Shown piece by piece: positions 4,949 through 28,150 of a stretch of DNA of 64,000 bases (positions are counted from its first letter, which is position 1; every line of letters begins with the position of its first letter). A model generated the notes under the pieces. The model did no database searches, was not told the origin of the DNA, and saw nothing but the letters and a program-made list of their open reading frames with translations. Source of the stretch: Chloroflexota bacterium. Its GTDB lineage: Bacteria; Chloroflexota; Anaerolineae; Anaerolineales; Villigracilaceae. Location: positions 1-64,000 of the forward strand of contig JACRBN010000018.1 in assembly GCA_016213105.1 (NCBI GenBank), given 5' to 3'. Position numbers and translations under genes: made by a program.

Positions 4949-7231
4949 CTACTTCTTCTGGTCGACTTCGGCTTCGGCTTCGGCGGTCAGTTGCTTCTCG
5001 GCCAACCGTCGCACACGATTGCGCTGGAAGGCGCCGATCAAGGCGAACAGGGCGATCAACAGGATCACGATGCCCGTCACCGCCAGGAAGGGAATCAGCC
5101 AGGTGGGACGCGTGAACTGGGTCGCGGGGATGGGCGACGGAGGGGTCACCACCGCTTGCGCCCCGGGCACGGCCTCACCCACGATCGAGAACGGGGAAAG
5201 TCCGCTGCCGCTGGAAACCTGGGTGCCGTTGGTCACGGCAAAGACGCCCGCCAGTTGGTCTTTCAGGGTGGTCAGGAGCAGCGCGCTCGATGCGACCGCC
5301 GTGCCCACATCCGTGTTGCCGGCCACCACCAGGATGCTCTTTTCGGGATTGTACGGGGAGGCCATCAACTCCAGGTAGCCCACGTGCTGGCCCTCGGGGA
5401 TGCGGTAGGAGATCTGCAGCTGGCGCTCGCTGGCCGTGTTCGTGGACAGGTCGAACGGCGCGGGCAGTTGCTCGTTGAGGTCGGCGATGATCGGCAGGTC
5501 GGCAGCCTTGCCGATGACGATCAGCGAATAGTTATTGAGAATTTCCTGCGGGACATCGTCCGCGTAAGCCATCGCCAGGTTGACCAGCGCGGGCTGGACG
5601 GCGTCGCCCAAAGCGTAGGCGATCTGCCCAGCCAGGTTCCACTTGTCGGCGGTTTTGGGCAGCACAAAGGCCACGTCACCCAGGTCGCTGGCGCCGGTGA
5701 ACAGGTCGGGGAAGAATTTCAGGTCGCGCGGCACGTTCGTGGTGGGCGCCACCCCTTCCGTGATCGGCAGGTGGAATTTCGTCTGGTCCGAGATGGTCAG
5801 CCAGGGGTCGAAGGACAGATCCTGGTTGCAGGACGGTTGCTGCAGCAGGCTGGCGCGCACTTCCAGGCGGTTCTCGCCGTAGCGAAGGAGCCCCGGCGGG
5901 ATGCGGATGTGCGCATCGGTCACCTGCTCCGTTTCCTTCGTGAAAAGGATCGTCGAAAAGATCTGTCCGTTCAGGTACAGGGAGAAGGAGGCCGCGCCGT
6001 ATTCCAGCAGGCCGGAGTGGTAATAGGTCAGATCGATGTAGCCGTCCTTGGCCATCACCTGGTTCCTCGCGGCGTAGAAAATGAAGTCGCGCGAGGTCAC
6101 GCCGATGCCGCTGATCAACCCGGAATCCTGCGTGGTGTAGCCGAGGTCGGCCAGCGAAAAGTCCTCGACGGAGGGCAGGGCCTGGGAGAGCAATTGCACG
6201 TTGGAGACGTAGGAAAGCGTGGGGTCTTCGAAGATCAACACCCGCGCCGTGCTGACGGCATGCGCCGCCTTGAGGATGGCCTGCGGCGTGGTGCCGCTCA
6301 CCAGCATGACCGCCTTCAGCGGGTTCCAGGGCGAGAGGGCCATCTCCAGGATGCCGTCGTCCCTGGCGCGTTCGGGCAGGCCGCTAAAGGTTCCGCCCGC
6401 CACCGGCTGCTTGAAATCCACTTCGCTAAGCAGGTCCAGCTTCTCGGGCAGGCCGACGAAGATCAGGTGGTACTTGGCACGGTCGGCCTCTGTCAGGTTG
6501 CCCACGCTGACCAGCTGCAGGTCGTACACGTCCGAGATCATCGAACCGAAGCCAGCCATCACGTTCAGGGCCGCCTGGAGTTCGCCCGCGTCCGGGTCGT
6601 CCGGGACCACCACTCGGGCGCCGTCCGGGATGATCGAATCCTGCAAGTAGAACGGGGCCGGCAGGCGTGACAGGTTCAGGGTCGGGCTGGTGGATTCATA
6701 GCCCAGGTCGAAGGCGGAACTGCCCTTCAACGTCACGATGGCGTTGACGTCGTAGGCGCAGCTCACCTGCGAGTCGAAGGTGAAGGTGAGGATGTGCCTG
6801 CCATCCTCGCGGATCAGGGTGAAGGCGTTGGCGGGCAGCTCGATCTGCTGGCTGTAGCTCCCGCTCGTGTTGACAGGGATCGTGGCGACGATAACGTCGT
6901 TGAACTTCACGAACAGGTTGCCCCCGAAGACCCCGCCCACTTCCTGGATTTTGGCAATTTCGGTGCCGGTCAAGAGCACATCGTAATTGATGATAAAACT
7001 TCCCGAAACCAGGCGCAGGTTGGGTGGAACGCTGAACAGGAGCCGTTCGACGGTCAACGGACTGCGCAGGGTCATTTCGGTCGTGTTCAGGTCTGCGAAC
7101 GAGAACATGATCTGGGTATCGGTAACCTGGACGCCCGGCTGGTCCTGCCCCTGCTCCTGGGCCAAAGCCTGAAGCGGGGTTGCCAGCAGGAGGACGGCCA
7201 GAAGGAATAAACTGATAATTTTGCTTCTCAT
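4949..7231 (-). CDS. BcsB-like envelope polysaccharide synthase subunit
   Basis: A 760-residue exported protein of the cellulose synthase BcsB type, the extracytoplasmic partner that guides a nascent polysaccharide. It has a signal peptide (SKIISLFLLAVLLLATPLQALAQ), two repeats of jelly-roll plus alpha/beta flavodoxin-like modules (VVVPDDPDAGELQAALN and LIFVGLPEKL in the first, LIVIGKAADLP and ILVVAGNTDVG in the second), and one C-terminal membrane helix (about 715-740, WLIPFLAVTGIVILLIALF) with a basic cytoplasmic tail. The ATG at 7231 follows CGGAG; a TTG two codons upstream is less likely. It is 57 bp after the Wzz/GGDEF-like gene on the same strand, probably one operon. No full-length BcsA with a PilZ domain is in the window; the nearest candidate partner is the GT2 at 8834-10057. 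The polymer need not be cellulose. Confidence 0.85.
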   Translation of the reverse strand: MRSKIISLFLLAVLLLATPLQALAQEQGQDQPGVQVTDTQIMFSFADLNTTEMTLRSPLTVERLLFSVPPNLRLVSGSFIINYDVLLTGTEIAKIQEVGGVFGGNLFVKFNDVIVATIPVNTSGSYSQQIELPANAFTLIREDGRHILTFTFDSQVSCAYDVNAIVTLKGSSAFDLGYESTSPTLNLSRLPAPFYLQDSIIPDGARVVVPDDPDAGELQAALNVMAGFGSMISDVYDLQLVSVGNLTEADRAKYHLIFVGLPEKLDLLSEVDFKQPVAGGTFSGLPERARDDGILEMALSPWNPLKAVMLVSGTTPQAILKAAHAVSTARVLIFEDPTLSYVSNVQLLSQALPSVEDFSLADLGYTTQDSGLISGIGVTSRDFIFYAARNQVMAKDGYIDLTYYHSGLLEYGAASFSLYLNGQIFSTILFTKETEQVTDAHIRIPPGLLRYGENRLEVRASLLQQPSCNQDLSFDPWLTISDQTKFHLPITEGVAPTTNVPRDLKFFPDLFTGASDLGDVAFVLPKTADKWNLAGQIAYALGDAVQPALVNLAMAYADDVPQEILNNYSLIVIGKAADLPIIADLNEQLPAPFDLSTNTASERQLQISYRIPEGQHVGYLELMASPYNPEKSILVVAGNTDVGTAVASSALLLTTLKDQLAGVFAVTNGTQVSSGSGLSPFSIVGEAVPGAQAVVTPPSPIPATQFTRPTWLIPFLAVTGIVILLIALFALIGAFQRNRVRRLAEKQLTAEAEAEVDQKK

Positions 7232-7288
7232 GAACAAACTCCGTTATCCACTAATAATAATTCGCGGCAGACTGCTTCGATGCACGGT

Positions 7289-8401
7289 TTAGCCAAAGGG
7301 ACGCACCTTGTACATGTTGATCTTTGCGGTGGACGCCATGGAAATATCCAGCGCGCTCTCCGCCTGGGTCATTGTGACCGAGATGGCCTCCCCGCCCTGG
7401 CGGTCGGAGAAACCGATGCGCGGGTCGAGGTGAATGCTCAACTCGTCCGCGCCTTCGAGGGTGACGGGCTGGTCGAGAATCTCGCGGATGCGCTCCAGGC
7501 GGCGCATGGCCGAGGCCCCGTCGGTCGAGAGCAGGAAAACGCCAAATTGCAGTTTCGACCAGCGTCCCACCAGGTCGTTGCCGCGCAACTCGGATTTCAA
7601 CGTACCGGTCACCTTGCGCATGATCTGGTTGATGTAGACCTGCGGCAGCGAATCGTAAATATCCTGGATGCCGTTCAGGTAGATGATCCCCAGCGTGTTG
7701 ACGACGTTGGGCTGGACCGACACCTCCTGGCGGATGCGCCGCTCGAAGAACACCCGCGCCAACGCCTGCGACTCGTAGTCGACGGTGTTGCGCTGGCCGA
7801 TGCGCGCCAGGGTGCCCGACACCTGGTCGCGGAAGATGGCCAGGCCGACGCCGATCACCAGGCCGACAAGCAGGGCCAGCAGGGCATCCTGGAACGGGCG
7901 CGGCGAGGAGGGTTCCTCAGCCGCCGTGGCCTGGTCCAGGAAGTCGATATTGTAGACGACGTACAGCTTGCGGACGTAATCGATGGCATATTGCCCGATG
8001 CCGTTTGCCAGCCTGGCGGCCACCACCGGGTCCGGGCCCTTGACGCTATAGCGGATGATATTGGCATCCGGCAGCAGCGTGGCCGAGGTCGTGTAGGCGG
8101 TAAAATCCGCGGGATCATTGCCCAACACCCTCAAGGCTTCGGTGGTGATCTGGTAGCTGTTGAGCACCTCGGCATAGGTCGCGATGATGGAGCGTTTATC
8201 CAGCGCTTCCAGGCTGTTGACCATGTCCCGGCTGTCGGTGTTCTCCAGGTTCGGGCTGACGATGAAGCGCGCGACCGCTTCGTATTCCGGCGTGACGATG
8301 AAGTATGAGTAAATCAGTGAAAAATTTACTGCCAGCAAAGCCGAGATGGCTATCATCCACCACCCTCGCTGGATGATCTTGAGAAAAAAACGAATCTCCA
8401 T
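7289..8401 (-). CDS. Wzz-type chain-length protein fused to a degenerate GGDEF domain
   Basis: A 370-residue inner-membrane protein. Helix 1 (about residues 14-35) is followed by an extracytoplasmic Wzz domain (EYEAVARFIVSPNLE, then ATYAEVLNSYQI) and helix 2 (about 180-202, ALLALLVGLVIGVGLAIF). In place of the tyrosine-kinase domain often found here, the cytoplasmic part aligns by eye with GGDEF domains: FFERRIRQEV, then LKSELRGNDLVGRWSKLQFGVFLL. The signature GGDEF position reads SKLQF, so cyclase activity is very unlikely. The ATG at 8401 follows AGGAGAG. It is first gene of the block with the BcsB-like gene. It may sense c-di-GMP or act as a docking domain; this is inference. Confidence 0.82.
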   Translation of the reverse strand: MEIRFFLKIIQRGWWMIAISALLAVNFSLIYSYFIVTPEYEAVARFIVSPNLENTDSRDMVNSLEALDKRSIIATYAEVLNSYQITTEALRVLGNDPADFTAYTTSATLLPDANIIRYSVKGPDPVVAARLANGIGQYAIDYVRKLYVVYNIDFLDQATAAEEPSSPRPFQDALLALLVGLVIGVGLAIFRDQVSGTLARIGQRNTVDYESQALARVFFERRIRQEVSVQPNVVNTLGIIYLNGIQDIYDSLPQVYINQIMRKVTGTLKSELRGNDLVGRWSKLQFGVFLLSTDGASAMRRLERIREILDQPVTLEGADELSIHLDPRIGFSDRQGGEAISVTMTQAESALDISMASTAKINMYKVRPFG

Positions 8402-8833: not shown

Positions 8834-10057
8834 ATGGAAAACCTTATGATCCTGATTATATCGAGTTTGCTGGCCGTGTTGTTTTGGGGCAGCCTGGCGT
8901 TGATCTTTTATACGTATTTCGGCTACCCCCTGCTGATTTCCCTGCTCCCCTCCCGAAAGCCCACAATCAACCCCAGCCAGGCAACTGCCCTCCCGTCGGT
9001 GACGTTGTTGATTGCCGCCCACAACGAGCAGGCCGTGATCGAGGAGAAGATCCGCAACAGCCTGGCCTGTGAATATCCGCGCGAAAAACTGCAGATCCTG
9101 ATCGTGACAGACGGCTCGCAGGACCGCACGCCCGACCTTGTCCAAAAATACCAGGGGCAGGGCGTGGAATTGCTGCACCAGCCCGAACGCCGCGGCAAGA
9201 TGGCGGCCATCAACCGCGCCATGCCCTCCGTCCGCGGGGAGATCATCATCTTTTCAGATGCCAACAACCTGTACCAAACGGACACGCTCCAAAAACTGGC
9301 CCAGCCCTTCAGCGACCCGCAAGTCGGCGCGGTGACAGGCGCCAAGCTCATCCTGAAAGGCGACGGAGACCTGGGTGAATCCGAGGGTTTGTATTGGAAA
9401 TACGAGTCCTACATCAAAAAGCAGGAGACCCGCGTCGGCAGCTGCACCAGCGTGGCCGGTGAGATCCTGGCCATTCGCAAAAGCGCCTACATCCATCCCC
9501 CGGACAATATCATCAACGACGACTTCTTCACCGCCATGCAGGTCATCCGCCAGGGATACCGCCTGGTCTACACACCCGAAGCCAAATCCGCGGAACGGGT
9601 CTCGCCCAGCGCCCGCGACGAGATGATCCGCCGCACCCGCATCAACGCGGGGCGCTACCAGGCGATTGCGCTTTCCCGCCAGGTGCTGCCCTTCCGCCAG
9701 CCCGTGCTGGTCTGGCAAATTTTCTCGCACAAATTCATGCGCCCGCTCGTCCCGTTCTTCATGCTCGCCGCCCTGGTCTCGAACGGACTGGCCGTTCTGA
9801 TACAGCCCATCGCGCCCCAGGGATGGCTCTTCCTCGGCCCGCCGCTGGGGATCGTCTTCCTCGTGCTGCAGGCGCTGTTCTACCTGCTGGCCGTGGTGGG
9901 CACCCGTGTTCAGAAAAATCAGGGCGGGGGCCGCCTGCGCACGTTGTTCTACCTGCCCACCTTTCTCACCAACAGCAACCTGGCCGCCTTGCAGGGCTTC
10001 TTCCAATTCCTGAAAAAGCGGCCCGGTCACCTGTGGCAGCGCATCGAACGGAGATAA
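8834..10057 (+). CDS. Membrane glycosyltransferase, family 2 (processive-type)
   Basis: A 407-residue GT2 enzyme. One N-terminal helix (about 6-28) precedes a GT-A domain with DGSQD (93-97), SDAN as the DxD-type metal site (141-144), an NDDFF acceptor/base motif (about 224-228) and RRTRINAGRYQA at the QxxRW position. Three or so helices follow. The architecture matches hyaluronan/PNAG/cellulose-type inner-membrane synthases, though it is short and lacks PilZ. It would add sugars from a nucleotide donor at the inner membrane. It starts the plus-strand block and is followed after 9 bp by a GT4. No clear ribosome-binding site precedes the ATG. Confidence 0.92.
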   Translation: MENLMILIISSLLAVLFWGSLALIFYTYFGYPLLISLLPSRKPTINPSQATALPSVTLLIAAHNEQAVIEEKIRNSLACEYPREKLQILIVTDGSQDRTPDLVQKYQGQGVELLHQPERRGKMAAINRAMPSVRGEIIIFSDANNLYQTDTLQKLAQPFSDPQVGAVTGAKLILKGDGDLGESEGLYWKYESYIKKQETRVGSCTSVAGEILAIRKSAYIHPPDNIINDDFFTAMQVIRQGYRLVYTPEAKSAERVSPSARDEMIRRTRINAGRYQAIALSRQVLPFRQPVLVWQIFSHKFMRPLVPFFMLAALVSNGLAVLIQPIAPQGWLFLGPPLGIVFLVLQALFYLLAVVGTRVQKNQGGGRLRTLFYLPTFLTNSNLAALQGFFQFLKKRPGHLWQRIERR

Positions 10058-11238: not shown

Positions 11239-12282
11239 ATGTATTTATCCCAGCCGTCACAAAAAAAATCGAAGCGCTCGGCGCTGGTTAAACGTATCCT
11301 GGAATTTGGATACCACAGCGGGCTGGTCCAACTGGGACGTCCACTGTGGGCCAACTCGTTGACCGTGCTCAACTATCACCGCATCGACAACCTGTCCCCC
11401 GAGACCTTCCAGCCCAACGTCAGCGCCTTGCCCGCCGAGTTCGCGCGCCAGATGGAATATCTTGCGCGCTGGTACAAGGTTGTTTCCCTGCAGACGCTGC
11501 ACGAGTGGCTGAACGGCGGGAGGAAGCTTCCCCCGCACGCCGCCCTGATTACCTTCGACGACGGCTACCTGGATAACTACACCAATGCCTATCCCATCCT
11601 GCGCAAACACGGTTTTTCTGCGGTCATCTTTCTCACGGCCGGACATATCGGCACGGACACCGCCTTTTACTGGGATTTGACCGCGTATTGTTTCGCCCAC
11701 ACCCGTCTCGACCGCATTCCCTTCCCGGACGGGACACAGCGCTGCTGGCATAACGAAGCCGAGATGCAGCAGGTCTCGTATGGCTGGATCGAATCATTGA
11801 AAAAACTGCCGGAGGATGAAAAGAAGAAATGGGTGGCGCGCCTGCCTGAACTGCTGGGCGTTGCCATTCCTGACGGATATTTCAAGAGGTTAATGATGAA
11901 TTGGGACCAGGTGCGCGAGATGAGCGCCAACGGCATCGAATTCGGCGGCCACACCATCCAACACCCCATCCTGACCCGCATCCCGCCCGAACGCGCCCGC
12001 TCCGAGATCAGCGGGTCGGTTGCCAGGGTCAGCGAGGAGTTGGGGAAACCCGTGACGAGCTTTGCCTACCCCAATGGGATGCCGGACGACTTCAATGCGG
12101 CCACGGCCAGGTTTGTTCAAGAAGCCGGCTGCCAGACCGCCTTTACCCTGCTCAACGGCCCAGCCAGCCTGGACGAAGTGCGCAAATCCCCCTACACCGT
12201 CCGCAGAAGTTTTATCTCACACAAACACTCCATGCCGGAGTTCAGCACCCTGATCAATCCACTCAACCGCCTGAGACACTAG
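11239..12282 (+). CDS. Polysaccharide deacetylase (NodB homology domain)
   Basis: A 347-residue carbohydrate esterase family 4 protein. NodB motifs: TFDDGY (105-110, catalytic and metal Asp), GGHTIQHP (metal His pair) and FAYPNG (motif 3). There is no obvious signal peptide, so it would act in the cytoplasm or be membrane-associated by its basic N-terminus. The family removes N- or O-acetyl groups from polysaccharides. It is last in the plus block and ends 3 bp from the stop codon of the convergent GT4, with no terminator between them. Confidence 0.92.
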   Translation: MYLSQPSQKKSKRSALVKRILEFGYHSGLVQLGRPLWANSLTVLNYHRIDNLSPETFQPNVSALPAEFARQMEYLARWYKVVSLQTLHEWLNGGRKLPPHAALITFDDGYLDNYTNAYPILRKHGFSAVIFLTAGHIGTDTAFYWDLTAYCFAHTRLDRIPFPDGTQRCWHNEAEMQQVSYGWIESLKKLPEDEKKKWVARLPELLGVAIPDGYFKRLMMNWDQVREMSANGIEFGGHTIQHPILTRIPPERARSEISGSVARVSEELGKPVTSFAYPNGMPDDFNAATARFVQEAGCQTAFTLLNGPASLDEVRKSPYTVRRSFISHKHSMPEFSTLINPLNRLRH

Positions 12283-12285: not shown

Positions 12286-13521
12286 CTACAGGGTCTTGTA
12301 AACATCCAGCACCTGTTTGGCAATTGTGCCCCAGGCAAAGCGCGTGTTGGATAAATGATGAGCATACTGTCCCATCTGCTGGGCCAGTTGCGGGTCGTTG
12401 ACCAGCAGCGAAATTTTCTGCGCCATTTCACGCGGGTCATGCGGCGGAACGATGAATCCGCTCTGGCCGTCCTCCACCGCCTCGGGCAGGCCGCCCACTT
12501 CCGTGGCGACGACCGGTTTCCCGAAAGTGTACGCCACCTGCAGCGAGCCGCTTTGCGTGCTGGAGTGGTAGGGATACACCACCACGGTCGCCAGGTCCAT
12601 CAGGGCGCCGACTTCCTCCAGGGGGATGTAGCGCAGATCCAGGTGGACATTCTCGTCAATTCCCAGCTCGGCAATGTGCGCCTTGAGCCTCGGCAGGTCG
12701 AAATTTTTGGTGGGATACCCGGCGACCACCAGGCGGGCATCACAGGTATCGAGCGCCAGCGCGAACGCTTCGAGCAGGTCTTCCAAACCCTTGCTGGGCG
12801 CCAGCAATCCAAAGAAAAGCACCACCTTCTCATCCTCCCGCAGATCGTAGCGCTGGCGCAGGCTTACCGTCCCTGGAGGGGACTGGATGTTCAACAGCCA
12901 TTCGGAATTGCCGTGCGGGACAACAAAGATATGGCGCGCATCCACGGTCGGGAACAGGCGCAGGAAGCGCTCCTGGCTTTCGTGCGCCAACAGGAAGATG
13001 GCCGAGAAGGAATGATAGGCGCGATGATACACACCCACCAGCCAGCGTCCCAGCAGACCCTGACCTTCGCGCGCTTCGAACTCGTGGCACACCTGGCTCA
13101 GGACAAATCCGCGCGAACGCAGGAACGCAATGAACAGGGCTTCCACGAGGTGATCGAAGCGCGAGAACTGAACAAGATGCGGCCGGGTGCGCAGCAGGTA
13201 GGCCGCCAGTTTCGACCACGCCAGCACGAAGCGGACTCCCCGCACCACGCGGCGCGCGGTCCAAAATAATTTCTTCATCATGCGGCGGAAACGATTCGAA
13301 TAATCCTGCTCGCTGCGCTTTTCGTAACCCTTCCACAGGTGCAGCAGTTTCTCGACCTTGAAGTTGTGCGGCAGAGCCTCCAGTTCGTATTCGGTCCCGA
13401 CGATCAGGGTCACGTCCGCGCCCTCGCGGGCCAGGGCCGTACACAACTGATAGGCAAAATGCACCAGGCCGCCGCTGTTGGCGGCTTCGATCACACAAAT
13501 TTGAAGTTTTTCAGGTTCCAT
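12286..13521 (-). CDS. Glycosyltransferase family 4
   Basis: About 411 residues, GT-B fold. Visible motifs are ANSGGLVHFAYQL near the N-terminus, LFFGLLAPSKGLEDLLEAF, and VVYPYHSSTQSGSLQVAYTFGKPVVATEVGG carrying a GT4 C-terminal signature in which the usual first Glu is replaced by a TQSGS stretch. The start at 13521 (MEPEKLQ) overlaps the last codons of the upstream GT4; an ATG two codons earlier (13527) is equally possible. It is the last gene of the long minus-strand polysaccharide block. Confidence 0.9.
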   Translation of the reverse strand: MEPEKLQICVIEAANSGGLVHFAYQLCTALAREGADVTLIVGTEYELEALPHNFKVEKLLHLWKGYEKRSEQDYSNRFRRMMKKLFWTARRVVRGVRFVLAWSKLAAYLLRTRPHLVQFSRFDHLVEALFIAFLRSRGFVLSQVCHEFEAREGQGLLGRWLVGVYHRAYHSFSAIFLLAHESQERFLRLFPTVDARHIFVVPHGNSEWLLNIQSPPGTVSLRQRYDLREDEKVVLFFGLLAPSKGLEDLLEAFALALDTCDARLVVAGYPTKNFDLPRLKAHIAELGIDENVHLDLRYIPLEEVGALMDLATVVVYPYHSSTQSGSLQVAYTFGKPVVATEVGGLPEAVEDGQSGFIVPPHDPREMAQKISLLVNDPQLAQQMGQYAHHLSNTRFAWGTIAKQVLDVYKTL

Positions 13522-15719: not shown

Positions 15720-15750
15720 GAACACCACATAAAATTCTAGTCAAAGCTCA

Positions 15751-16410
15751 TTACAGGCCGGGGCCTGATTTGGCAGTCGCATAGTAGCACGGAAACAGGC
15801 CCGCAAGCAAAGCCAGGGCGGGACGGCTGCCCAGGAGGTTCAACAGGCGGTCGGGATATTTATAACGATACCGGTGCTGCCAGGCAAATCCAATCGCCTG
15901 GCCTTTCAGCGGCAGGATATATTCGGGCGCCTGCAGGTTCGGCATGGCGCCGAACAGACTCAATTGGGAATAGCCTGCCCGTCCCAAGCTCCGCCTGACG
16001 CCCCACAAGGTGGCCTTACGCGAAGCGGACCCAAAATGCCGTTTCAAGCCGAGCAGGTTGGGAAAACCGAACAACAGGTTTCCGCCCGGGCGCAGCCACC
16101 CATGAATCACACGGTACACCTCGAGTTCGCGGAGCGCGCCGCCCCTTGGAAAACCGAACGGGATGGCAACCACGTCAAAGGCGGCGGGCGGAAAAGTCCG
16201 CGCGTCGAACGCGCCCTGGAGCTGCTCGTCGCCAAGCCAAGTGAGCGCGGAAATGCCCATTTTGCCGAACAGGCGCGTGAAATCATCCCGCCCGCCCCCA
16301 ATGACCAGCACCCTACTGTCCGCATCGAGCGGCAGCAGGAAGCGCCAATCCAGGCTGGATTCTGGGATTATGTCTTGGGAGGGAGTTTGTATTTGAGGGC
16401 TGGCTTGCAC
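15751..16410 (-). CDS. Class I SAM-dependent methyltransferase-like protein
   Basis: A 219-residue protein with a Rossmann-type beginning (RVLVIGGGRDDFTRLFGKMG), then FDVVAIPFGFPRGG and LRPGGNLLFGFPN, which correspond to motifs I, IV and V/VI of class I methyltransferases. The glycine-rich motif I is GGGRDD rather than the usual ExGxGxG, so cofactor binding is plausible but not certain. The start is GTG at 16410 with AGGAGA seven bases upstream. It may modify a sugar or a lipid-linked intermediate of the exopolysaccharide. Confidence 0.75.
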   Translation of the reverse strand: MQASPQIQTPSQDIIPESSLDWRFLLPLDADSRVLVIGGGRDDFTRLFGKMGISALTWLGDEQLQGAFDARTFPPAAFDVVAIPFGFPRGGALRELEVYRVIHGWLRPGGNLLFGFPNLLGLKRHFGSASRKATLWGVRRSLGRAGYSQLSLFGAMPNLQAPEYILPLKGQAIGFAWQHRYRYKYPDRLLNLLGSRPALALLAGLFPCYYATAKSGPGL

Positions 16411-20578: not shown

Positions 20579-21789
20579 ACAAGATCAGGCTTGGACGATG
20601 GCGAAAGACGATCCCTGACCTGCTTGATGCGCTCCAGGAAGGCAGGGTTGTTTTTGAGGCGCTCTTTCAGGCACAGGATGCGCATTTCAGCGGCACACCG
20701 CCACGACCCCTTGATCAGGCGCATCCAATACATGGGCTGGGAATCGGTGGCCAGGCTGGATTTATAACCGGCCTCTCCCGCCATGAAATCGTAGATCTGA
20801 TTGTCGCTGTGGGCATTGTGCAAAATGGCGTAATAGTGAGAGACCAGCCCCGGGCGGTACAAATTTCCAGGCAGGTAGTTCAGTCCGCTTTGATAGAACA
20901 ATACTTTGCGATGGTAGACAAAATTATACAGGTAGCCAATCGTCGCCGCGGGGGTGGATACTTTCAACAGTTGGATTTCGCCGCTTTCGAAACGGGAGGC
21001 GATCAAATTTCTGTGGAATTCGAGCAGGTACGGATTTGCGAACACACCCGGCTTGCCGCGCTTCCGCCATTCCTGCTGGTGCAGGTCGACCAGGATGGCA
21101 AACATATCGAGAGCCTGCGCCACCGTTTGGGCCGCTTCGAGTTGAATCTCGCCATCCTTCTGATATTCCTTGACGGAGCGGCGGATCTGGCTGCGCTTGT
21201 TGGAACTGAGCAGTTGCAGATAATCCATATGGGCGGCGCGAACCTTCTGCAAATCCACGTAAAAGGAGGGGGATTCCTCCTCCAACAGCACGCCCACGTG
21301 CGGGATGTTTTTTCCATCCAGCAAACCGGCTTGTTTCGCAAAAGGGGCCGAAAGCCCTGGCAAGCCGAATTCGTGCCAGCCCCGGCCTCCCAGCATTCCC
21401 AACAGGGACGGCATGTCGAATTGCAGGCCCGGGAGGTGTAGCACCGCGTTGTATTCGATGTACAACTGATCGAAGGAACGGATGCCGGTCGTGTTCAGGG
21501 AAATCGTTCGGGTGGGCAGGATGCCGTATTTCCGACGTCGGCTCGCCCCAAGGAAAAAGGCCAGGGCGGGCTGGTCCTGAATGTAACCGACCACCAGGCG
21601 AACCTCGACCGTCTGTGGCAGGCTGTTCAGCCAATTCGAGATCCAGCCCCAGGATAAAAAGTAGTCGTGCTCGCACCTTTCCAAAAGCGAACGCCAAACC
21701 TGTTCGATCTGGGATGGATCGGTTTTGCGGTCATATTCGACGACACGCAGGTCGCCAACAGACGGCATCTCGGTCATGGGTTCGGTCAT
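20575..21789 (-). CDS. GNAT/FemAB-type acyltransferase of polysaccharide loci (CelD/BioF2-like)
   Basis: A 404-residue protein resembling the CelD/BioF2-like acetyltransferase group: an N-terminal half with HDYFLSWGWISNWLNSL, and a C-terminal GNAT half with KRSQIRRSVKEYQKDG, AATIGYLYNFVYHRKVLFYQSG and a final YDFMAGEAGYKSSLA block. Members are common in cellulose and exopolysaccharide loci and are thought to acylate sugars or aminoacylate precursors. The ATG at 21789 (MTEPMTEM) is chosen over a much longer frame that would run into the upstream gene. It is 17 bp after the upstream membrane-protein gene. Confidence 0.85.
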   Translation of the reverse strand: MTEPMTEMPSVGDLRVVEYDRKTDPSQIEQVWRSLLERCEHDYFLSWGWISNWLNSLPQTVEVRLVVGYIQDQPALAFFLGASRRRKYGILPTRTISLNTTGIRSFDQLYIEYNAVLHLPGLQFDMPSLLGMLGGRGWHEFGLPGLSAPFAKQAGLLDGKNIPHVGVLLEEESPSFYVDLQKVRAAHMDYLQLLSSNKRSQIRRSVKEYQKDGEIQLEAAQTVAQALDMFAILVDLHQQEWRKRGKPGVFANPYLLEFHRNLIASRFESGEIQLLKVSTPAATIGYLYNFVYHRKVLFYQSGLNYLPGNLYRPGLVSHYYAILHNAHSDNQIYDFMAGEAGYKSSLATDSQPMYWMRLIKGSWRCAAEMRILCLKERLKNNPAFLERIKQVRDRLSPSSKPDLV

Positions 21790-21806
21790 CAACACAAACC
21801 GCGCGA

Positions 21807-22520
21807 TCAGGATTCGTTGGAAATTAAATCGAGCACGGCAAACAGCGCCACCAGGGCAAACAGCCATTCGTAATGGCTCTCCTTGACCTCCTGCACGGCC
21901 TGTACGAATGGAACCACCTCGGAGTAATTGTAGACACCCACGTAGACGAGCTTGGCCACCTTGGCCCATAAATAATTGAGCAGGAACAATCCCCCGATGG
22001 GCAGATACACGAAGGGTAGGTATTTTTTGGCAAGAGTCTTGACCAATGGAATCGCCAGGACAGCCAGTGGAAGGATCACCACCACGCCAAACCAGAACAC
22101 GTCGAAAGCTGTTTCGAAATTCAACTCGATGCCGTTGAATTCGAGATTGTGTACGGTGATCTCCCCCTGCGCGTTGAACTGATTCAGGGCTTCGGGCGTG
22201 GCAATGTTGAAAATTCTCTGGCCCCAGCTGATCTCCTCACCCGCGCCAAAGAAGGCAATGAAGGCGAAGCCCAGAAACGCCAGTTGTTTGATCCAGTGCG
22301 TTTTGTCCTTGAGCGGCTGCCTGCGGGAGCGTAAAAAGCCGTAGAAAAACAGGATGGACGTGGCAAACAAACCCAGGGCGCCGATATTTTCGAAGTAATG
22401 ATCCTCTGTGAAGAAGAAATTATCCAGCCGGCCGCCAACCGCCAGGGTCTGGTAGGACAAGACAATGTATATCCCCAGGACAACAAACAGGATGGGACGC
22501 TGAAAAAGTTTTTGCAACAT
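21807..22520 (-). CDS. Polytopic membrane protein with a conserved EEISWGQR motif
   Basis: A 237-residue protein with six or so membrane segments (for example PILFVVLGIYIVLSYQTLAV, LAFLGFAFIAFFGAGEE, FWFGVVVILPLAVLAIPLV). The motif GAGEEISWGQRIF at the end of the third helix carries charged residues in a membrane context. I have seen it recur in uncharacterised membrane proteins near glycan genes, but I know no function. AGGAG precedes the start. Position in the operon between the initiating sugar transferase and the GNAT suggests a role in polymer assembly. Confidence 0.8.
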   Translation of the reverse strand: MLQKLFQRPILFVVLGIYIVLSYQTLAVGGRLDNFFFTEDHYFENIGALGLFATSILFFYGFLRSRRQPLKDKTHWIKQLAFLGFAFIAFFGAGEEISWGQRIFNIATPEALNQFNAQGEITVHNLEFNGIELNFETAFDVFWFGVVVILPLAVLAIPLVKTLAKKYLPFVYLPIGGLFLLNYLWAKVAKLVYVGVYNYSEVVPFVQAVQEVKESHYEWLFALVALFAVLDLISNES

Positions 22521-22599: not shown

Positions 22600-23274
22600 T
22601 TACTTCGCGCCCCGCTGCTCGAGAACCGCAGTGAACGTGCGAAACAGGATGACCAGGTCCAGGACCAGGCTTCGCCGCTCGATGTAAACGATGTCCAGCC
22701 GCAACCGGTCATCGAATTCCAGCGATGCGCGCCCGACCACCTGCCATAGCCCGGTGAGACCGGGCAGAACATCCAGGCGTTCCGTGTGCCACAATTGATA
22801 CGTCTCGGGTCCAAAAGAGGTGGGACGCGGCCCGACCAGACTCATATCGCCGATCAGGATGTTGAATAACTGGGGCAGTTCATCGAGGCTGGTCTTGCGT
22901 AAAAATCGCCCAATGCGGGTGATGCGCGGGTCATTTGTGATTTTGAAGTCCGGCCATTGCAGCTCGTTCAGGTGCGCGTATTTCGCCTTGAGTTCCTCGG
23001 CGTTGGGAACCATGGAACGGAACTTATACAGCGAAAAACGGCGCCCTCCCATGCCTGTGCGCTGCTGCACAAAAATAGCCGGCGCGCCCGGAGACGTAAC
23101 CGTGATGATGAGGGCCAACAATCCGATCAGGGGCAGCCAGAAAGGCAGGGCGCCGATCACGATGACCAGATCGAAAATGCGCTTCGCAATGAGGTACCTT
23201 GACCCGGTCAACAGGCGTTTATTGGGATCGTAATACCTGAGCCATCCCAGGTCGATGGATGCGGCGGCTTTCAT
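22600..23274 (-). CDS. Initiating sugar transferase (polyprenyl-phosphate hexose-1-phosphate transferase)
   Basis: A 224-residue protein of the bacterial sugar transferase family (WcaJ/WbaP C-terminal domain size). One membrane segment (about 35-58) is followed by the catalytic core: FRSMVPNAE, GRFLRKTSLDELPQLFNILIGDMSLVGPRP, LPGLTGLWQVVGRA. All hallmark blocks are intact. It would transfer a sugar-1-phosphate to undecaprenyl phosphate, starting repeat-unit synthesis at the inner membrane and implying a Wzx/Wzy pathway with the flippase and ligase downstream. Its ATG overlaps the stop of the GGDEF-like gene. Confidence 0.95.
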   Translation of the reverse strand: MKAAASIDLGWLRYYDPNKRLLTGSRYLIAKRIFDLVIVIGALPFWLPLIGLLALIITVTSPGAPAIFVQQRTGMGGRRFSLYKFRSMVPNAEELKAKYAHLNELQWPDFKITNDPRITRIGRFLRKTSLDELPQLFNILIGDMSLVGPRPTSFGPETYQLWHTERLDVLPGLTGLWQVVGRASLEFDDRLRLDIVYIERRSLVLDLVILFRTFTAVLEQRGAK

Positions 23275-24128
23275 GGGGCGCTTCTCTGGCTAATCGCCGC
23301 CTGCTTTTCGAGATCGGCAGCAGTTGTCTGCATCCTGCCCGAGGCCTTGCGCACCAACTCGTCGAAGGTCAGGGCCTCATCTGGGAAGGAGGATGATCCC
23401 AGGAGCACCCGGGCTTTCATTCTCTCGGTCACGGATTTTTCGATGCGGTCGGCCAGAATCATCGAATTCTGGAAATTGGTCTCGGGACAGAGGATGACGA
23501 ACCTGCCCTTTTCATCGCGGATGATCAGGTCCGTCTCCCGCGCGCATTCGCTGATGATCTGACCGGCCTTGGCCGTTGCAAAACGGGAAAGGATATCCCG
23601 CTCCAGGATCATGGCATCCTTGGACTGCTCCCGTTCGAAATCGGCCAGATGCACGAGCAAAACCGCCAGGGAATGATGATAACGACGGCTTCGCGTCAAC
23701 TCGGCGCTGATGCGGTGCTCGGCGGTGTGAAAATCGAGGGTGCGATTGGGATACGTGTTGGCTGTCAACCCCTCCAGCAAATGGATCACCTGGTTGATGT
23801 GCCGGCCGATGTCAAAAGCCAGCCCGGCCGCGATCTCGATCAATAGGAACTGGATCCCGTGAATTTGCAGGGGAACGTAAGTGGAGGTCCGCCAATACAC
23901 GACCCAGGTCAACCCGTAAATCACCGCCCAGATGACCAGGAAGGCATAGATCGAAAACCGCACGGATGGCCTGACCAGAATCCCGGAGACGACCGCCAGC
24001 GTCACCAGAATAAAGAACGCCGGGCTGAGGTTGATAAGGTTTTCTTCGACATAATCGATCTGTGCGATGCCAAAGATTATCAACACAAATAAAAACAGAA
24101 AAGCAACCGAATTTTTTAAGTCATTCAT
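23271..24128 (-). CDS. Membrane protein with a degenerate GGDEF domain
   Basis: A 285-residue protein: four predicted helices in the first 110 residues (NSVAFLFLFVLIIFGIAQI, AFFILVTLAVVSGILV and two more), then a C-terminal GGDEF-like fold (HRISAELTRSRRYHHSLAVLLVHLADFE, then IISECARETDLIIRDEKGRFVILCPET). The GGDEF position reads EKGRF and the substrate-binding N/D residues are absent, so cyclase activity is unlikely. It is the first gene of the long minus-strand exopolysaccharide block and overlaps the initiating sugar transferase (ATGA), so it may control that step. Confidence 0.82.
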   Translation of the reverse strand: MNDLKNSVAFLFLFVLIIFGIAQIDYVEENLINLSPAFFILVTLAVVSGILVRPSVRFSIYAFLVIWAVIYGLTWVVYWRTSTYVPLQIHGIQFLLIEIAAGLAFDIGRHINQVIHLLEGLTANTYPNRTLDFHTAEHRISAELTRSRRYHHSLAVLLVHLADFEREQSKDAMILERDILSRFATAKAGQIISECARETDLIIRDEKGRFVILCPETNFQNSMILADRIEKSVTERMKARVLLGSSSFPDEALTFDELVRKASGRMQTTAADLEKQAAISQRSAP

Positions 24129-24187: not shown

Positions 24188-24283
24188 CACGTTCTGCTGG
24201 ATTTGGAGGAATATTGATTTTCACATCCCGCTGCGACCTGACACCTCTGCCGCCAAGGATGGAATATCAATGGAAATCCTGCT

Positions 24284-27200
24284 TCAACGATAACTCTGCT
24301 CATTGAGCATCTCCAGGAAAATCTCGACCACCTGGGGGTCGAATTCCTTTCCAGACTGCTCCTTCACATAAGCGTTGGCGTATTCCCTGCCAAAAGCCGG
24401 GCGGAAGGGACGCGCATGCTGAAGGACCGTCCATACCTTGACAACAGAAAATATCCGCGCTTCGAGTGGAATCTCCTTTCCGTGCAGGCCTCTGGGATAC
24501 CCATTGCCGTCCCAGCGTTCGTGATGACAATAGGGGATGTTCATGGCAGGCCTCAGGTATGCAATCGACTGTAAAAAATCGTACGCAAACACAGGATGGC
24601 GATGGATTTCATCCCATTCCTCGTCTGTTAGTGGAGCTGATTTTAACAAAATGTTATCAGAAATGTCCAGTTTTCCAATGTCGTGCAAGAGTACCCCCCG
24701 GTAGATATGGGACATCTCCGATTCTGGAAGTTCCATCCGGTGAGCCATATCCAGCGTCAGGGAAGCCAGGGTCTGGGCCAATTCGTCGGGTTCGTGGTGG
24801 CGCATTTGCAGGACGCGCGCCCAGCCTTCGATGGCCGCATCATAGGCCACGGCCAGCTCGGTAAAGGAGCGCTGCATGTCGTTGAACAGGCTTGCATCCT
24901 CCACGGCCACGGCGGCCTGGCGCGCCAAAATCTCCAGGAAGTGGATCCAGCCAGAATTAGGCTCCACCAGCCGACGATAGAAAAGTTCCAGCACGCCCTT
25001 GACCTGTCCCTTGGCCACCAGCGGAACAGCATACATCGAGACGAAGTCCTCGCCCACGATCCGCTCGGGGTGACGCAGGGGCACCTGGGGCGAAAACAGA
25101 TCATACTCGCTGATCACGCTCCGCTCGAGCGCGGCGACCCCGGCCTGGTCCTCCCCCAACAGCAGGGACACGCGCCGTATGGCGCTCCCACGGAACCCGC
25201 GTCCCGCCGCGTATTCCAGCATTTGCAGGTGCGGGTTGAGCAGCATCACATCCACTGCGTCGGTCTCCAGGTGCATGGAGATTTGCGAAACGAGGATGTT
25301 CAACGTCACCTGCAGGTCCAGGCTCGACGCGATGGCCGCATCGATATTGGAAAGCACCGTCAACTGGTGCAGGCGTTCATCGGTTTGCAGGTAGAGGCGC
25401 ACGTGCTCAACCATCAAGGCCGCTTGCGAGGCGATGAGCTCGATCAGGCGAATATCGTCCTGGCTGTAAGCGGATAGCTTCTGGTTTTGCAGGTCAATCG
25501 CGCCCAGGACACGGTCCCCGGTTCGCAGCGGAACAACCAGTTCGGATAAAGCCTTTTCCCAGCCCTCGATGTAATCTTCGTAGGCATGGACATCGCTGAC
25601 AAAAATGGAATCTTTTGTGCGAATGGCCTTGGCGATAATGCCAGGCCCCTTGGTCGTCAGCAAGGCGGGCTTGATCAAATCTACAAAGGGACCAGCCGCC
25701 CCAGCGCGATCCAGGGTCAGGCCATCCTCCTTGACCAGCCAGATGCTGCAATGCGAATTGTGGAATTCCGACGCCAGCAGGTTGGCAATCGACCGGCACA
25801 AGGTCGGGATGTCGCTGGAGACGCCGGCCAGCAGCGTGGACGAGGCGCGCGCCAGCCGATCCAATTCGCGGTTGCGGTCGCCGATCTCCGAAAAAAGGCG
25901 CGCGTTGAAAATGGCGGAGGCGGCCTGCTCAGCCAGCAGGGACAGGGAGAGTTGGTCGTATTCATTAAATCTTCGGGCGGCGTCGACCGACTCGATGCCC
26001 AGAATTCCAATCAGGCTTCCACCATAGAGCATGGGCACTTCCAGGACGGCCCGCACCACGCGGTCTTCGTAGACGCGGGCGCGGTTATCCCACTCGCTAT
26101 AGTCTTCCACGATCAATGGCTGGAGAGTGGCGGCCACACGACCCGCCATGCCCTCTCCCAATTTCAAGGTTGTTCCCAACATCAACTCCGAATCGGAGAC
26201 CACCGAAAGCACCACTTCCCGCCGCGCTTCATCGTACAGGTAGATAAAAGCATTGGAAACGCGATAAAAGCCAGTGGCCTTGTTGACGATCAGGTTCAGC
26301 ACCGTGCCCAGGTCGCGGCGGCTCATGATCTCGACCGCCACCTGATACAGGCTGGAAAACTCATTCGCCCGGTAGCGGGCCTCGGTCAGCAGTCGATTCT
26401 TTTCCAGCACCAGGGCCGCCTGGCCAGCCAGCAGGCGGATCAACTGGACTTCATCCTCCGTCCACTGGCGCGACACCGTATCGAAAACAACCAGGGAGCC
26501 GACTGAATTGGAGGAGACATGGAACGGCTCCATCACCAGGGCGCGGATATTTTCCCGCTTCACCAGGTGCGGCATATATTTGGAATCCTCCGCAACATCC
26601 CCAACGGAAAAGGAATGCCAATGTTCCAACATTCCCGCGCGAATGGCCTCTGAAAACTCCTCATCCAGGCTTCGGCTATCCTTGAAACCATAGGTTGCAG
26701 TGATGAAGCGACGCGACGCGCTCTCCATCGCCACAATGGCCGACTTGGGTGCCTTGACGAGGCCCGAAATATGCAGGCACACCAAATTCAGGATGGATTG
26801 GGCATCCTCCACCGCCAGGATCTCACGGTCGATGTCTGCCAGGGATTGCAGGGCCTGGATCTTCTCCTGAACCGCCGCTTCGGCCCGCTTGCGATCGGTG
26901 ACATCCTCCACCATCGACTCGTAATACTGGATGGCGCCCTTCTCGTCGTGGACCGCCCTGGCGCTTTCACGCACATATATGGCCGAGCCATCCGCCTTGA
27001 GCCAGCCGACTTCCAACCCCCGCACCTCCCCGTCACGCTCCATCCGCTCGACAAAATCCCGGCGGGAGTATCCTTCCGCAAAACCGTTCTGCCAAAGATT
27101 ACGCTTCTTCAACTCCTCCAGGCTGTCGAAACCCAACATGCGCACCATGGCCATATTGGCCAGGAGGATCTGTCCATCGGGGGTTGTGCGCGCCAGTCCC

Positions 27201-28150
27201 ACGCTGGCATTCTCGAACACGCCGCGAAAACTCGCTTCGCTGGAACGCAGGGCTTCGTAGATGCGTTTGCGATGGATCACCATCGCCACCTGCGAGGAAA
27301 CAAATTCCAACATGCGCTGCTCGGGTTCCCCATAGGCATGACGGTCGTGATAATGTTGAACCACCATCACCCCGATGGAAACCCCGCTCACAGTCAACGG
27401 CACACCCAGCCAAATGGACGAGGACGGACCGACCGCATCCACCACGCCTTTCAAGGCCAGGGATTCCTGGCTCTCCTGGGCGCACAACAGCGACTCGCCG
27501 CTGCGCAGCACATATTCGGTCAGACCATTTCCCGCCTTGACCGTGGTTTCGGTCAATTGATCCAACTCATCCACAAAATACGGAAAACTCAAGGTTTCCT
27601 GGATTGGGTCATACAGGGCGATGTAAAAATTATCGGCATACATTACCCGCCCAATAACGCGATGGATTTCCGGCAGAAGATCATCCAGGGATGCGGCGCT
27701 TTCTGCCGCCTCCGCGATTTGATACACCGCCTCCTGGAGGACCTGGGCCTGATTCCGTTTCGCGGGCTGCTCCTGCTCCCGGTTGCGCGCCAGGGCTTTT
27801 TTCAAGACAGTGGGCAGGCGCCGCAAATGATCCGCATCCAACAGGACATAATCCTCGATGTTTCCCTTTTCGAGCAAGGTCAGGGCCACCCCTTCGGATT
27901 CAGGCTCCACCAGGAGAACGATGGGAAGGGGCAGATCCAATGTCTTCAGGACTTCCTTATCCCCCAAAGAGTTCATATCCGCAACGAGCAGATCGAAGGC
28001 TCGGGCTTCGAGTCTGTCCAGGCTGCCCACTCGTGTAATCGAAAAAGCCCCTTGCCCTTGGTCCAGGATGACTGAAACAGACTCCACATGGGGTGAAGCA
28101 TCCACCATCACCAACACAACTCGAATCACCTGATCAGGGGATAAATCCAT
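24284..28150 (-). CDS. Multi-GAF/PAS sensor protein with C-terminal HD-GYP domain
   Basis: A 1288-residue cytoplasmic sensor. By eye: a receiver-like N-terminus (about 1-125, FDLLVADMNSLGD), GAF (about 155-300), PAS (about 305-430, VFENASVGLARTTPDG), three further GAF modules (about 445-590, 605-760, 790-930), another GAF (about 950-1080) and HD-GYP (about 1095-1288). HDIGK and HHERWDGNGYP are intact. However, the segment that normally reads ARI..V.DV.DAL is ARIFSVVKVWTVL, so the Asp expected to ligand metal is Lys. Phosphodiesterase activity is therefore doubtful. It has its own good promoter and is followed after 155 bp by the exopolysaccharide block, suggesting it relays small-molecule signals to polymer production. 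Confidence 0.88.
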   Translation of the reverse strand: MDLSPDQVIRVVLVMVDASPHVESVSVILDQGQGAFSITRVGSLDRLEARAFDLLVADMNSLGDKEVLKTLDLPLPIVLLVEPESEGVALTLLEKGNIEDYVLLDADHLRRLPTVLKKALARNREQEQPAKRNQAQVLQEAVYQIAEAAESAASLDDLLPEIHRVIGRVMYADNFYIALYDPIQETLSFPYFVDELDQLTETTVKAGNGLTEYVLRSGESLLCAQESQESLALKGVVDAVGPSSSIWLGVPLTVSGVSIGVMVVQHYHDRHAYGEPEQRMLEFVSSQVAMVIHRKRIYEALRSSEASFRGVFENASVGLARTTPDGQILLANMAMVRMLGFDSLEELKKRNLWQNGFAEGYSRRDFVERMERDGEVRGLEVGWLKADGSAIYVRESARAVHDEKGAIQYYESMVEDVTDRKRAEAAVQEKIQALQSLADIDREILAVEDAQSILNLVCLHISGLVKAPKSAIVAMESASRRFITATYGFKDSRSLDEEFSEAIRAGMLEHWHSFSVGDVAEDSKYMPHLVKRENIRALVMEPFHVSSNSVGSLVVFDTVSRQWTEDEVQLIRLLAGQAALVLEKNRLLTEARYRANEFSSLYQVAVEIMSRRDLGTVLNLIVNKATGFYRVSNAFIYLYDEARREVVLSVVSDSELMLGTTLKLGEGMAGRVAATLQPLIVEDYSEWDNRARVYEDRVVRAVLEVPMLYGGSLIGILGIESVDAARRFNEYDQLSLSLLAEQAASAIFNARLFSEIGDRNRELDRLARASSTLLAGVSSDIPTLCRSIANLLASEFHNSHCSIWLVKEDGLTLDRAGAAGPFVDLIKPALLTTKGPGIIAKAIRTKDSIFVSDVHAYEDYIEGWEKALSELVVPLRTGDRVLGAIDLQNQKLSAYSQDDIRLIELIASQAALMVEHVRLYLQTDERLHQLTVLSNIDAAIASSLDLQVTLNILVSQISMHLETDAVDVMLLNPHLQMLEYAAGRGFRGSAIRRVSLLLGEDQAGVAALERSVISEYDLFSPQVPLRHPERIVGEDFVSMYAVPLVAKGQVKGVLELFYRRLVEPNSGWIHFLEILARQAAVAVEDASLFNDMQRSFTELAVAYDAAIEGWARVLQMRHHEPDELAQTLASLTLDMAHRMELPESEMSHIYRGVLLHDIGKLDISDNILLKSAPLTDEEWDEIHRHPVFAYDFLQSIAYLRPAMNIPYCHHERWDGNGYPRGLHGKEIPLEARIFSVVKVWTVLQHARPFRPAFGREYANAYVKEQSGKEFDPQVVEIFLEMLNEQSYR

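What the first reader, a model, noticed from the sequence alone, without database searches (positions are those of the whole stretch)
4949..28150. Exopolysaccharide locus tied to several degenerate c-di-GMP-type domains
A near-complete Wzx/Wzy-type pathway (initiating transferase, four or more glycosyltransferases, flippase, polymerase/ligase, Wzz-like protein, deacetylase, GNAT, methyltransferase) is combined with a BcsB-like protein from the synthase-type pathway. Three signalling domains at the locus (GGDEF-like at 7289 and 23271, HD-GYP at 24284) have each lost key catalytic residues. This suggests an envelope polymer whose assembly is controlled by non-catalytic nucleotide-sensing or scaffolding domains, a combination I do not know as a described system.
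Basis: partly seen in the sequence, partly recalled or inferred. Interest (0 to 1): 0.75.

Follow-up and report, generated by a model that had tools for sequence, protein, structure and literature searches.

The report
c-di-GMP-gated Wzx/Wzy sugar-polymer locus
A bacterial assembly line for a surface sugar polymer carries dead signal-making domains that have kept the likely pocket for sensing the signal molecule c-di-GMP, one of them fused to the polymer-length regulator, together with a protein borrowed from cellulose makers; the same layout recurs in many related bacteria.

Summary
In this Chloroflexota genome, 4949-28150 holds a Wzx/Wzy-type locus with a BcsB-like protein and three signalling domains without intact catalytic motifs. 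It is a conserved cluster: in 30 named Chloroflexota loci found by the Wzz-GGDEF search, BcsB lies on the same contig in 26. Both GGDEF-like domains lost GG[DE]EF but kept the RxxD I-site that binds c-di-GMP in known receptors. Among distinct Wzz-fused domains RxxD is kept in 50 of 56, GG[DE]EF in 0 of 56. Two kinds of gene fusion tie the parts together: Wzx-BcsB, and the four-TM GGDEF-like protein with the initiating transferase. The genome has no BcsA, no Wza-type exporter, and 16 strong GGDEF matches elsewhere. Best reading: a c-di-GMP-gated Wzx/Wzy pathway whose degenerate GGDEF receptors act on initiation and chain length, with a BcsB-family protein receiving the polymer outside. Closest described: Listeria Pss and Bacillus Yda, which are synthase-type. 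Nothing here is biochemically tested. HD-GYP is a neighbour found near few relatives.

The parts
4949..7237 (-). BcsB-like protein (signal peptide, BcsB ectodomain in two matched stretches, C-terminal TM)
   Evidence: Pfam BcsB E 2.2e-41; only BcsB gene matched in the genome; falls in a BcsB group of Wzx/Wzy/Wzz-GGDEF loci, 95/90 support
7289..8401 (-). Wzz (PCP) fused to a degenerate GGDEF domain
   Evidence: Pfam Wzz + GGDEF; TIGR01006 below cut-off; AlphaFold2 mean pLDDT 83, C-terminal domain matches solved GGDEF domains, e.g. 6tts_A TMt 0.82
7574..7585 (-). RGND: I-site (RxxD) of the Wzz-fused GGDEF domain
   Evidence: R273 and D276 invariant in 31 of 31 rows; R..D in 50 of 56 in the wider set
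7544..7558 (-). SKLQF in place of GGDEF (lost active site)
8834..10057 (+). GT2 membrane glycosyltransferase, no QxxRW motif
   Evidence: Pfam Glyco_tranf_2_3; 0 of 16 aligned rows show QxxRW at that place; weak PgaC/IcaA match, 85 of 422 bits
10067..11221 (+). GT4 glycosyltransferase
   Evidence: Pfam
11239..12282 (+). polysaccharide deacetylase
   Evidence: Pfam Polysacc_deac_1
12286..13578 (-). GT4 glycosyltransferase (start uncertain; ORF overlaps the next)
   Evidence: Pfam
13511..14686 (-). GT4 glycosyltransferase
   Evidence: Pfam
14670..15728 (-). APH-family kinase-like protein
   Evidence: Pfam APH; at the same place in several close relatives
15751..16410 (-). possible SAM methyltransferase
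   Evidence: no Pfam or NCBIfam match; reading of sequence only
16461..17939 (-). Wzx-type MOP flippase
   Evidence: Pfam Polysacc_synt_3 E 4e-81
17936..19381 (-). Wzy-type polymerase/ligase
   Evidence: Pfam Wzy_C; best NCBIfam TIGR03097, below cut-off
19484..20578 (-). probable lipoprotein/secreted protein of unknown family
   Evidence: no Pfam or NCBIfam match; homologues in the G061 and G401 clusters
20575..21810 (-). GNAT/FemAB-like acyltransferase (start uncertain)
   Evidence: Pfam Acetyltransf_6
21807..22520 (-). membrane protein of unknown family
   Evidence: no significant family; homologues in the G061, G222 and G401 clusters
22600..23274 (-). initiating phosphoglycosyl transferase; start overlaps the stop of the upstream GGDEF gene by 4 bases
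   Evidence: Pfam Bac_transf E 7e-62
23271..24128 (-). four-TM protein with degenerate GGDEF domain (YdaK-like layout)
   Evidence: Pfam GGDEF; AlphaFold2 four N-terminal helices then GGDEF fold, mean pLDDT 74
23529..23540 (-). RETD: I-site of the four-TM GGDEF protein
   Evidence: R197, T199, D200 invariant in 9 of 9; R..D kept in 25 of 28 stand-alone homologues
23499..23513 (-). EKGRF in place of GGDEF (lost active site)
24284..28150 (-). GAF/PAS sensor with HD-GYP domain lacking one conserved Asp; neighbour, probably accessory
   Evidence: Pfam GAF, PAS, HD_5; alignment to 4mcw; motif scan of fetched loci finds HD-GYP ORFs in window, L106, L190, L238 only

Best explanation
A c-di-GMP-gated Wzx/Wzy exopolysaccharide pathway in a bacterium without a Wza-type outer-membrane exporter. 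Lipid-linked repeat units are started by the PGT (22600), extended by one GT2 and three GT4 enzymes, flipped by Wzx and polymerised by Wzy. Two catalytically dead GGDEF proteins bind c-di-GMP at their I-sites: the four-TM protein (23271) acts at initiation, next to the PGT; the GGDEF domain on Wzz (7289) sits where a kinase-like domain sits in a related Wzz protein and switches chain-length control and polymerisation. The BcsB-family protein does not serve a cellulose synthase but receives flipped or polymerised sugar on the outer face near Wzx and guides it through the wall. Shown by sequence: the parts, their conservation as a cluster, I-site retention with active-site loss, the two kinds of fusion, absence of BcsA and Wza. 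Inferred: c-di-GMP binding itself, its direction (activation), the step that each receptor controls, and BcsB's role with Wzx.
For: Cluster conservation: of 30 named loci from the Wzz-GGDEF search, BcsB lies within 10 kb in 24, on the same contig in 26, and in the genome in 29. In L095 and L101 GGDEFtm-PGT-GT4-WzzGGDEF-Wzy-Wzx-GT4-GT4-GT2-BcsB all lie on one strand. The cluster also occurs outside the class, in G188 and G212. In 150 genomes 13 have Wzz-GGDEF relatives, 12 BcsB relatives, 8 both, 1.0 expected (kinship not corrected; some of the 13 match by the Wzz part alone). I-site: of 159 positions in the Wzz-fused domain only 5 are invariant in 31 rows, two being R and D of RxxD. Fusions: Wzx-BcsB in one 1288-aa ORF and, across a contig break, in a second genome of the genus; GGDEFtm-PGT in three genomes. 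L061 carries a GKST-type kinase-like stretch where the others carry GGDEF. The 33 BcsB rows from loci with Wzx, Wzy or Wzz-GGDEF form one side of a branch, apart from BcsA-linked ones. No BcsA and no Poly_export protein in the genome; 16 strong GGDEF matches elsewhere. Precedent: YdaK R202A and D205A abolish EPS (PMC5422440); PssE binds c-di-GMP (PMC4125290).
Against: RxxD is also common in ordinary cyclases (11 of 15 ORFs parsed; the one misparse, L003, reads RAGD), so presence alone is weak; the argument rests on invariance after active-site loss. 6 of 56 Wzz-fused domains have lost it (L228-L231, L233, L236), as have 3 of 28 stand-alone GGDEFtm and all 3 GGDEFtm-PGT fusions, so c-di-GMP binding by GGDEFtm is dispensable somewhere. 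Among 30 clusters where both receptor genes could be judged none lacked both sites, but 1.4 were expected by chance: not significant. The Wzz of G051 and G124, the very genomes with the Wzx-BcsB fusion, has no GGDEF domain. No flippase was recognised near BcsB in L110-L112, where BcsB lies beside Wzy. The Wzx-BcsB junction holds a signal-peptide-like stretch with an AxA site, so the halves may be separated after insertion, and that fusion was seen in one genus only. No binding or genetic data.
Confidence: 0.58

Rival explanations
1. Two machines share one locus: a Wzx/Wzy pathway for one polymer, and a synthase-type Pss/Yda-like unit (GT2 8834 + BcsB 4949 + deacetylase + GGDEF receptor) for another.
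For: The GT2 weakly matches PgaC/IcaA and is the genome's best match to the BcsA model; GT2 lies beside BcsB in L095 and L101; Listeria Pss pairs an IcaA-like GT with BcsB (PMC4125290, passages).
Against: 0 of 16 aligned GT2 rows carry QxxRW whereas E. coli BcsA and the BcsA-like proteins of L149 and L151 do; in the stretches seen, clusters L104, L097/L239, L098/L238 and L172/L193 have BcsB and no recognised GT2; Wzx is fused to BcsB in G051.
Confidence: 0.2
2. The degenerate GGDEF domains are nucleotide-free scaffolds (dimerisers or protein docks), with RxxD kept for folding or protein contact.
For: I-site arginine lost in all 3 GGDEFtm-PGT fusions, and RxxD lost in 6 of 56 Wzz-fused domains, while the domains persist.
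Against: R and D of RxxD are invariant in 31 rows with identity down to 22% while most of the domain varies; the closest studied analogues PssE and PelD bind c-di-GMP, and YdaK needs its RxxD (PMC4125290, PMC8461298, PMC5422440, passages).
Confidence: 0.2
3. The product is a cell-wall or S-layer-linked glycan (protein glycosylation or teichuronic-like), and the Wzy_C protein is a ligase. This concerns the product and is compatible with the c-di-GMP reading.
For: NCBIfam matches, all below cut-off, include an O-glycosylation ligase for Wzy_C and, for Wzx, an O-glycosylation flippase and TuaB; two relatives' BcsB carry LysM or SH3_3 domains.
Against: A Wzz chain-length protein and a deacetylase fit a long polymer; all those matches are below curated cut-offs.
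Confidence: 0.25

Closest known systems
Listeria monocytogenes PssA-E (PMC4125290, passages read)
   Same: BcsB orthologue PssD with the degenerate-GGDEF I-site receptor PssE, required for an exopolysaccharide
   Different: IcaA-like synthase PssC; Wzx, Wzy, Wzz or a PGT were not mentioned in the passages read
Bacillus subtilis YdaJKLMN (PMC5422440, PMC7064775, PMC13274460, passages read)
   Same: YdaK: four TM helices plus degenerate GGDEF with RxxD five residues before the dead active site, the layout of ORF 23271; required for EPS with YdaLMN
PelD of the Pel system (PMC8461298, passages read)
   Same: degenerate GGDEF receptor with RxxD, four predicted TM helices, polymer made by an inner-membrane complex
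   Different: GAF domain before GGDEF; complex is PelDEFG with a GT4
Wzz/BY-kinase polysaccharide co-polymerases (CapAB/Wzc type; recalled)
   Same: Wzz domain with a cytoplasmic module at the C-terminus
   Different: module here is a dead GGDEF domain instead of a tyrosine kinase
BcsA-BcsB cellulose synthase
   Same: BcsB family protein
   Different: no BcsA in the genome; BcsB falls with those of Wzx/Wzy/Wzz-GGDEF loci

Membership tests
Wzx/Wzy-dependent polysaccharide pathway | PGT, Wzx flippase, Wzy and Wzz in one cluster | tested here: met
Wzx/Wzy-dependent polysaccharide pathway | Outer-membrane Wza exporter (only in cells with an outer membrane) | tested here: not met
   no PF02563 in the genome, 4 of 14 controls ring; lack of an outer membrane in Chloroflexota is recalled
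Bacterial cellulose synthase (Bcs) | BcsA catalytic subunit | tested here: not met
   best TIGR03030 match 30 of 699 bits
Bacterial cellulose synthase (Bcs) | BcsB subunit | tested here: met
   PF03170 142 bits, cut-off 21; NCBIfam BcsB models all far below cut-off, so a distant member
Degenerate-GGDEF I-site receptor (PelD/YdaK/PssE kind) | GGDEF fold | tested here: met
Degenerate-GGDEF I-site receptor (PelD/YdaK/PssE kind) | Active-site motif lost | tested here: met
Degenerate-GGDEF I-site receptor (PelD/YdaK/PssE kind) | RxxD kept five residues before the dead active site | tested here: met
   RGND and RETD in the window
Degenerate-GGDEF I-site receptor (PelD/YdaK/PssE kind) | Binds c-di-GMP | not testable with these tools
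   needs a binding assay
Pss/Yda synthase-dependent EPS | Processive GT2 synthase with QxxRW beside BcsB (motif as hallmark is recalled) | tested here: not met
   GT2 present but QxxRW absent in 16 of 16 aligned rows
HD-GYP phosphodiesterase | Full set of metal-binding residues (role of this Asp recalled) | tested here: not met
   first Asp of SDVFDAL is Lys

The most novel reading that the evidence does not exclude
An undescribed class of polysaccharide co-polymerase in which a c-di-GMP receptor domain takes the place of the tyrosine kinase, so that the second messenger acts directly on chain length and polymerisation in a Wzx/Wzy pathway, with a BcsB subfamily that has left the synthase world and pairs with the flippase.
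Probability: 0.45. Interest if true: 0.82.

Novelty: new variant of a known kind. Interest (0 to 1): 0.67.

Why it matters
Direct c-di-GMP control by degenerate GGDEF receptors is described for polymers such as Pel, Pss and Yda. Here the same device appears inside a Wzx/Wzy pathway, on the chain-length protein and beside the initiating enzyme, and BcsB appears with a flippase rather than a synthase. If true it blurs the textbook line between the Wzx/Wzy and synthase pathways and gives defined, testable switches for polymer output in Anaerolineae and other Chloroflexota.

Tried and rejected
Riboswitch control: no Rfam match in the window at gathering thresholds. BcsB with a hidden BcsA: rejected. 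HD-GYP as a core element: rejected. My clade profile labelled several GAF-rich ORFs 'HDGYP'; a motif scan of all fetched loci confirms HD-GYP only in the window, L106, L190 and L238; the scan needs HD[IVLM]GK and HHE..GYP-type motifs and would miss odd variants; L064's labelled protein is a PAS/GAF histidine kinase by Pfam. PilZ as receptor: two short separate PilZ frames elsewhere in the genome, none in the window. Plasmid search gave one close locus, Leptolinea sp. HRD-7, among 8 records matched, and no match for the four-TM GGDEF protein. The 'each cluster keeps at least one I-site' pattern (0 of 30 without, 1.4 expected; my hand count) is not significant. No flippase found in L110 or L058 by Pfam scans of two unknown large ORFs; L103 does have a divergent one. 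L236, a Wzz-fused domain without R in RxxD and without a receptor partner in the fetched stretch, is counted as lost. The rows of the BcsB tree were picked by me, 47 loci plus E. coli, 50 rows kept.


Full report
What is there. The window lies on contig C15 of a 5.4 Mb genome of 28 contigs. The named loci nearest to its Wzz-GGDEF gene come from Anaerolineales and other Chloroflexota assemblies. Reading from 28150 down to 4949, the locus holds a GAF/PAS/HD-GYP sensor, a four-TM GGDEF-like protein, the initiating phosphoglycosyl transferase (PGT), a membrane protein, a GNAT/FemAB-like protein, a protein of unknown family, Wzy_C, Wzx, a possible methyltransferase, an APH-like protein, two GT4s, then on the plus strand deacetylase, GT4 and GT2, and finally, divergent from these, Wzz-GGDEF and BcsB. 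The stop of the four-TM GGDEF gene overlaps the start of the PGT gene by four bases.

Dead active sites, kept I-sites. Pfam recognises both GGDEF domains above its cut-off and NCBIfam only below it, as expected for degenerate members. AlphaFold2 models show the GGDEF fold in both: for Wzz-GGDEF mean pLDDT 83 (pTM 0.47) and a match to the DgcB GGDEF domain 6tts_A at TM 0.82 of target length, rmsd 2.2; for the four-TM protein mean pLDDT 74 with four N-terminal helices and GGDEF matches up to TM 0.78 of target length among the rows shown. GGDEF reads SKLQF and EKGRF. The RxxD I-site five residues upstream reads RGND and RETD.

Is the I-site under selection? In 31 Wzz-GGDEF rows with identity down to 22%, 17 columns are invariant. 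Five of these lie in the 159-position GGDEF region, two of them R and D of RxxD. An arginine 31 residues further on (secondary I-site position, recalled from PleD) is kept in 28 of 31. Over the distinct Wzz proteins with the domain, R..D is kept in 41 of 41 plus 9 of 15 found later, 50 of 56 in all; GG[DE]EF in 0 of 56. For stand-alone four-TM proteins R..D is kept in 18 of 18 plus 7 of 10. In the three fusions of this protein to the PGT the arginine is gone. Against this, RxxD is also frequent in the genome's ordinary cyclases: 11 of 15 ORFs in which a GGDEF-like motif was parsed, one of the other four being a misparse that reads RAGD. Presence alone proves little.

One unit, not a juxtaposition. 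A scan of genome contigs with five Wzz-GGDEF rows gave 30 loci, all Chloroflexota by their titles, or, for one Villigracilaceae record, as labelled. The scan pattern was a single N-terminal peptide of this clade, so it says nothing about distant phyla. BcsB lies within 10 kb in 24 of 30 and Wzx, by similarity to the window's, in 20 of 30, many loci being cut by contig ends. Of the six without BcsB, five have it in the genome; for L097 and L098 it lies on the same contig, at the end of the same gene series. L095 and L101 carry the series on one strand. G188 and G212, outside the class, carry it too. A Leptolinea plasmid carries it with two tandem BcsB genes. In a class sample 43 of 396 genomes match the Wzz-GGDEF profile at E 1e-25 or better, some over the Wzz part only.

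Fusions. In G051, Wzx and BcsB are one 1288-aa ORF with both Pfam domains. In G124, of the same genus, two contig ends share the same Wzx stretch, one continuing into BcsB. The junction keeps a signal-peptide-like segment, so cleavage cannot be excluded. In these two genomes Wzz has no GGDEF domain. In G127, L110 and G019 the four-TM GGDEF-like protein is fused to the PGT; Pfam sees only Bac_transf in the two that were scanned, and the GGDEF-like half is recognised by similarity to the window protein at E 1e-11 to 1e-14. Two other BcsB proteins carry LysM or SH3_3 domains, which suggests contact with the wall.

BcsB without BcsA. The genome has one BcsB and no BcsA; the best match to the BcsA model is the window's own GT2 at 30 bits. 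That GT2 and its 15 aligned homologues lack QxxRW. In 400 phylum genomes BcsB occurs in 48. Forty fetched stretches, not all places, were laid out: some pair BcsB with a BcsA-like GT2, some with a degenerate GGDEF protein and a long GT2, some with Wzx/Wzy, and several show none of these. A tree of 50 BcsB rows that I picked places the 33 from loci with Wzx, Wzy or Wzz-GGDEF on one side of a branch (95/90; 96% of 200 bootstrap trees). In L110-L112 BcsB lies beside Wzy and no flippase was recognised in the stretch; L103 has a divergent flippase.

The HD-GYP neighbour. Its Asp-to-Lys change is clear against 4mcw. HD-GYP ORFs with full motifs occur near the cluster in L106 (adjacent), L190 and L238, each with the Asp. 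Among the fetched loci no other was found by that motif scan, so it is at most an occasional partner.

Mechanism. Most likely c-di-GMP, made by cyclases elsewhere in the genome, binds the GGDEF domain of Wzz and the four-TM protein beside the PGT, and so permits initiation and long-chain polymerisation; BcsB takes over the polymer at the outer face near Wzx. A precedent for regulating a PGT by direct contact is EpsW-EpsZ in Myxococcus (PMC12802240, abstract read). Precedents for I-site receptors are YdaK, PssE and PelD (PMC5422440, PMC7064775, PMC4125290, PMC8461298, passages read). The direction of control and the exact step are inferred.

Literature. Searches with GGDEF, Wzz and related words gave no paper on a Wzz-GGDEF fusion that I could see: 0 papers, 4 papers, listing only except passages of PMC7112194, 11 papers, listing only except passages of PMC5772234. 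BcsB, Wzx and Chloroflexi together: 0 papers; any four of BcsB, flippase, fusion, degenerate GGDEF, Wzx: 0. Two further searches gave 39 and 66 papers, of which 20 and 15 were listed. The library holds open-licence papers only. The review PMC8461298 has no occurrence of Wzx or Wzz, and the operon survey PMC7112194 none of Chloroflexi.

Verdict. Real, conserved, and a new variant of a known kind: degenerate-GGDEF control of polysaccharide output, here on Wzx/Wzy parts. Biochemistry is needed.

Noticed in passing
L156:12703-16743 (GT2 ORFs of about 1280-1400 aa also in L158, L161, L163, L164, L176): In other Chloroflexota, BcsB (and in most of these a degenerate GGDEF gene) sits near a GT2 of about 1300 aa; in L156 Pfam finds six MshEN stretches (a c-di-GMP-binding domain, recalled) before the GT2. 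The other long GT2 proteins were not scanned by Pfam.
   Followed up: partly
L129, L131, L132, L133, L136, L138, L139, L144, L188, L045: Degenerate GGDEF proteins in BcsB loci outside the Wzz-GGDEF set keep R..D in 9 of 10 (L045 has lost it) and GG[DE]EF in 0 of 10: a Pss/Yda-like pairing across the phylum.
   Followed up: partly
L071 (G000:C25:901000-920900), L034: The same genome has a second Wzz-degenerate-GGDEF protein (I-site REVD) in another Wzx/Wzy-like cluster without recognised BcsB in the stretch.
   Followed up: partly
L084:18534-24289 (AP024711.1): Leptolinea sp. HRD-7 plasmid carries the cluster with two tandem BcsB genes, so it can be plasmid-borne.
   Followed up: yes
L173:2384-6595: 1404-aa protein joins a glucose/sorbosone dehydrogenase-like domain to BcsB.
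   Followed up: no
L057:14589-17999, L063:9173-12934: BcsB proteins with N-terminal LysM and/or SH3_3 domains, probably wall-binding.
   Followed up: no
2238-4616: Restriction-enzyme helicase subunit (ResIII, EcoEI_R_C) next to the left end of the locus.
   Followed up: no
19484-20578: Protein of no known family inside the cluster, conserved in close relatives.
   Followed up: no
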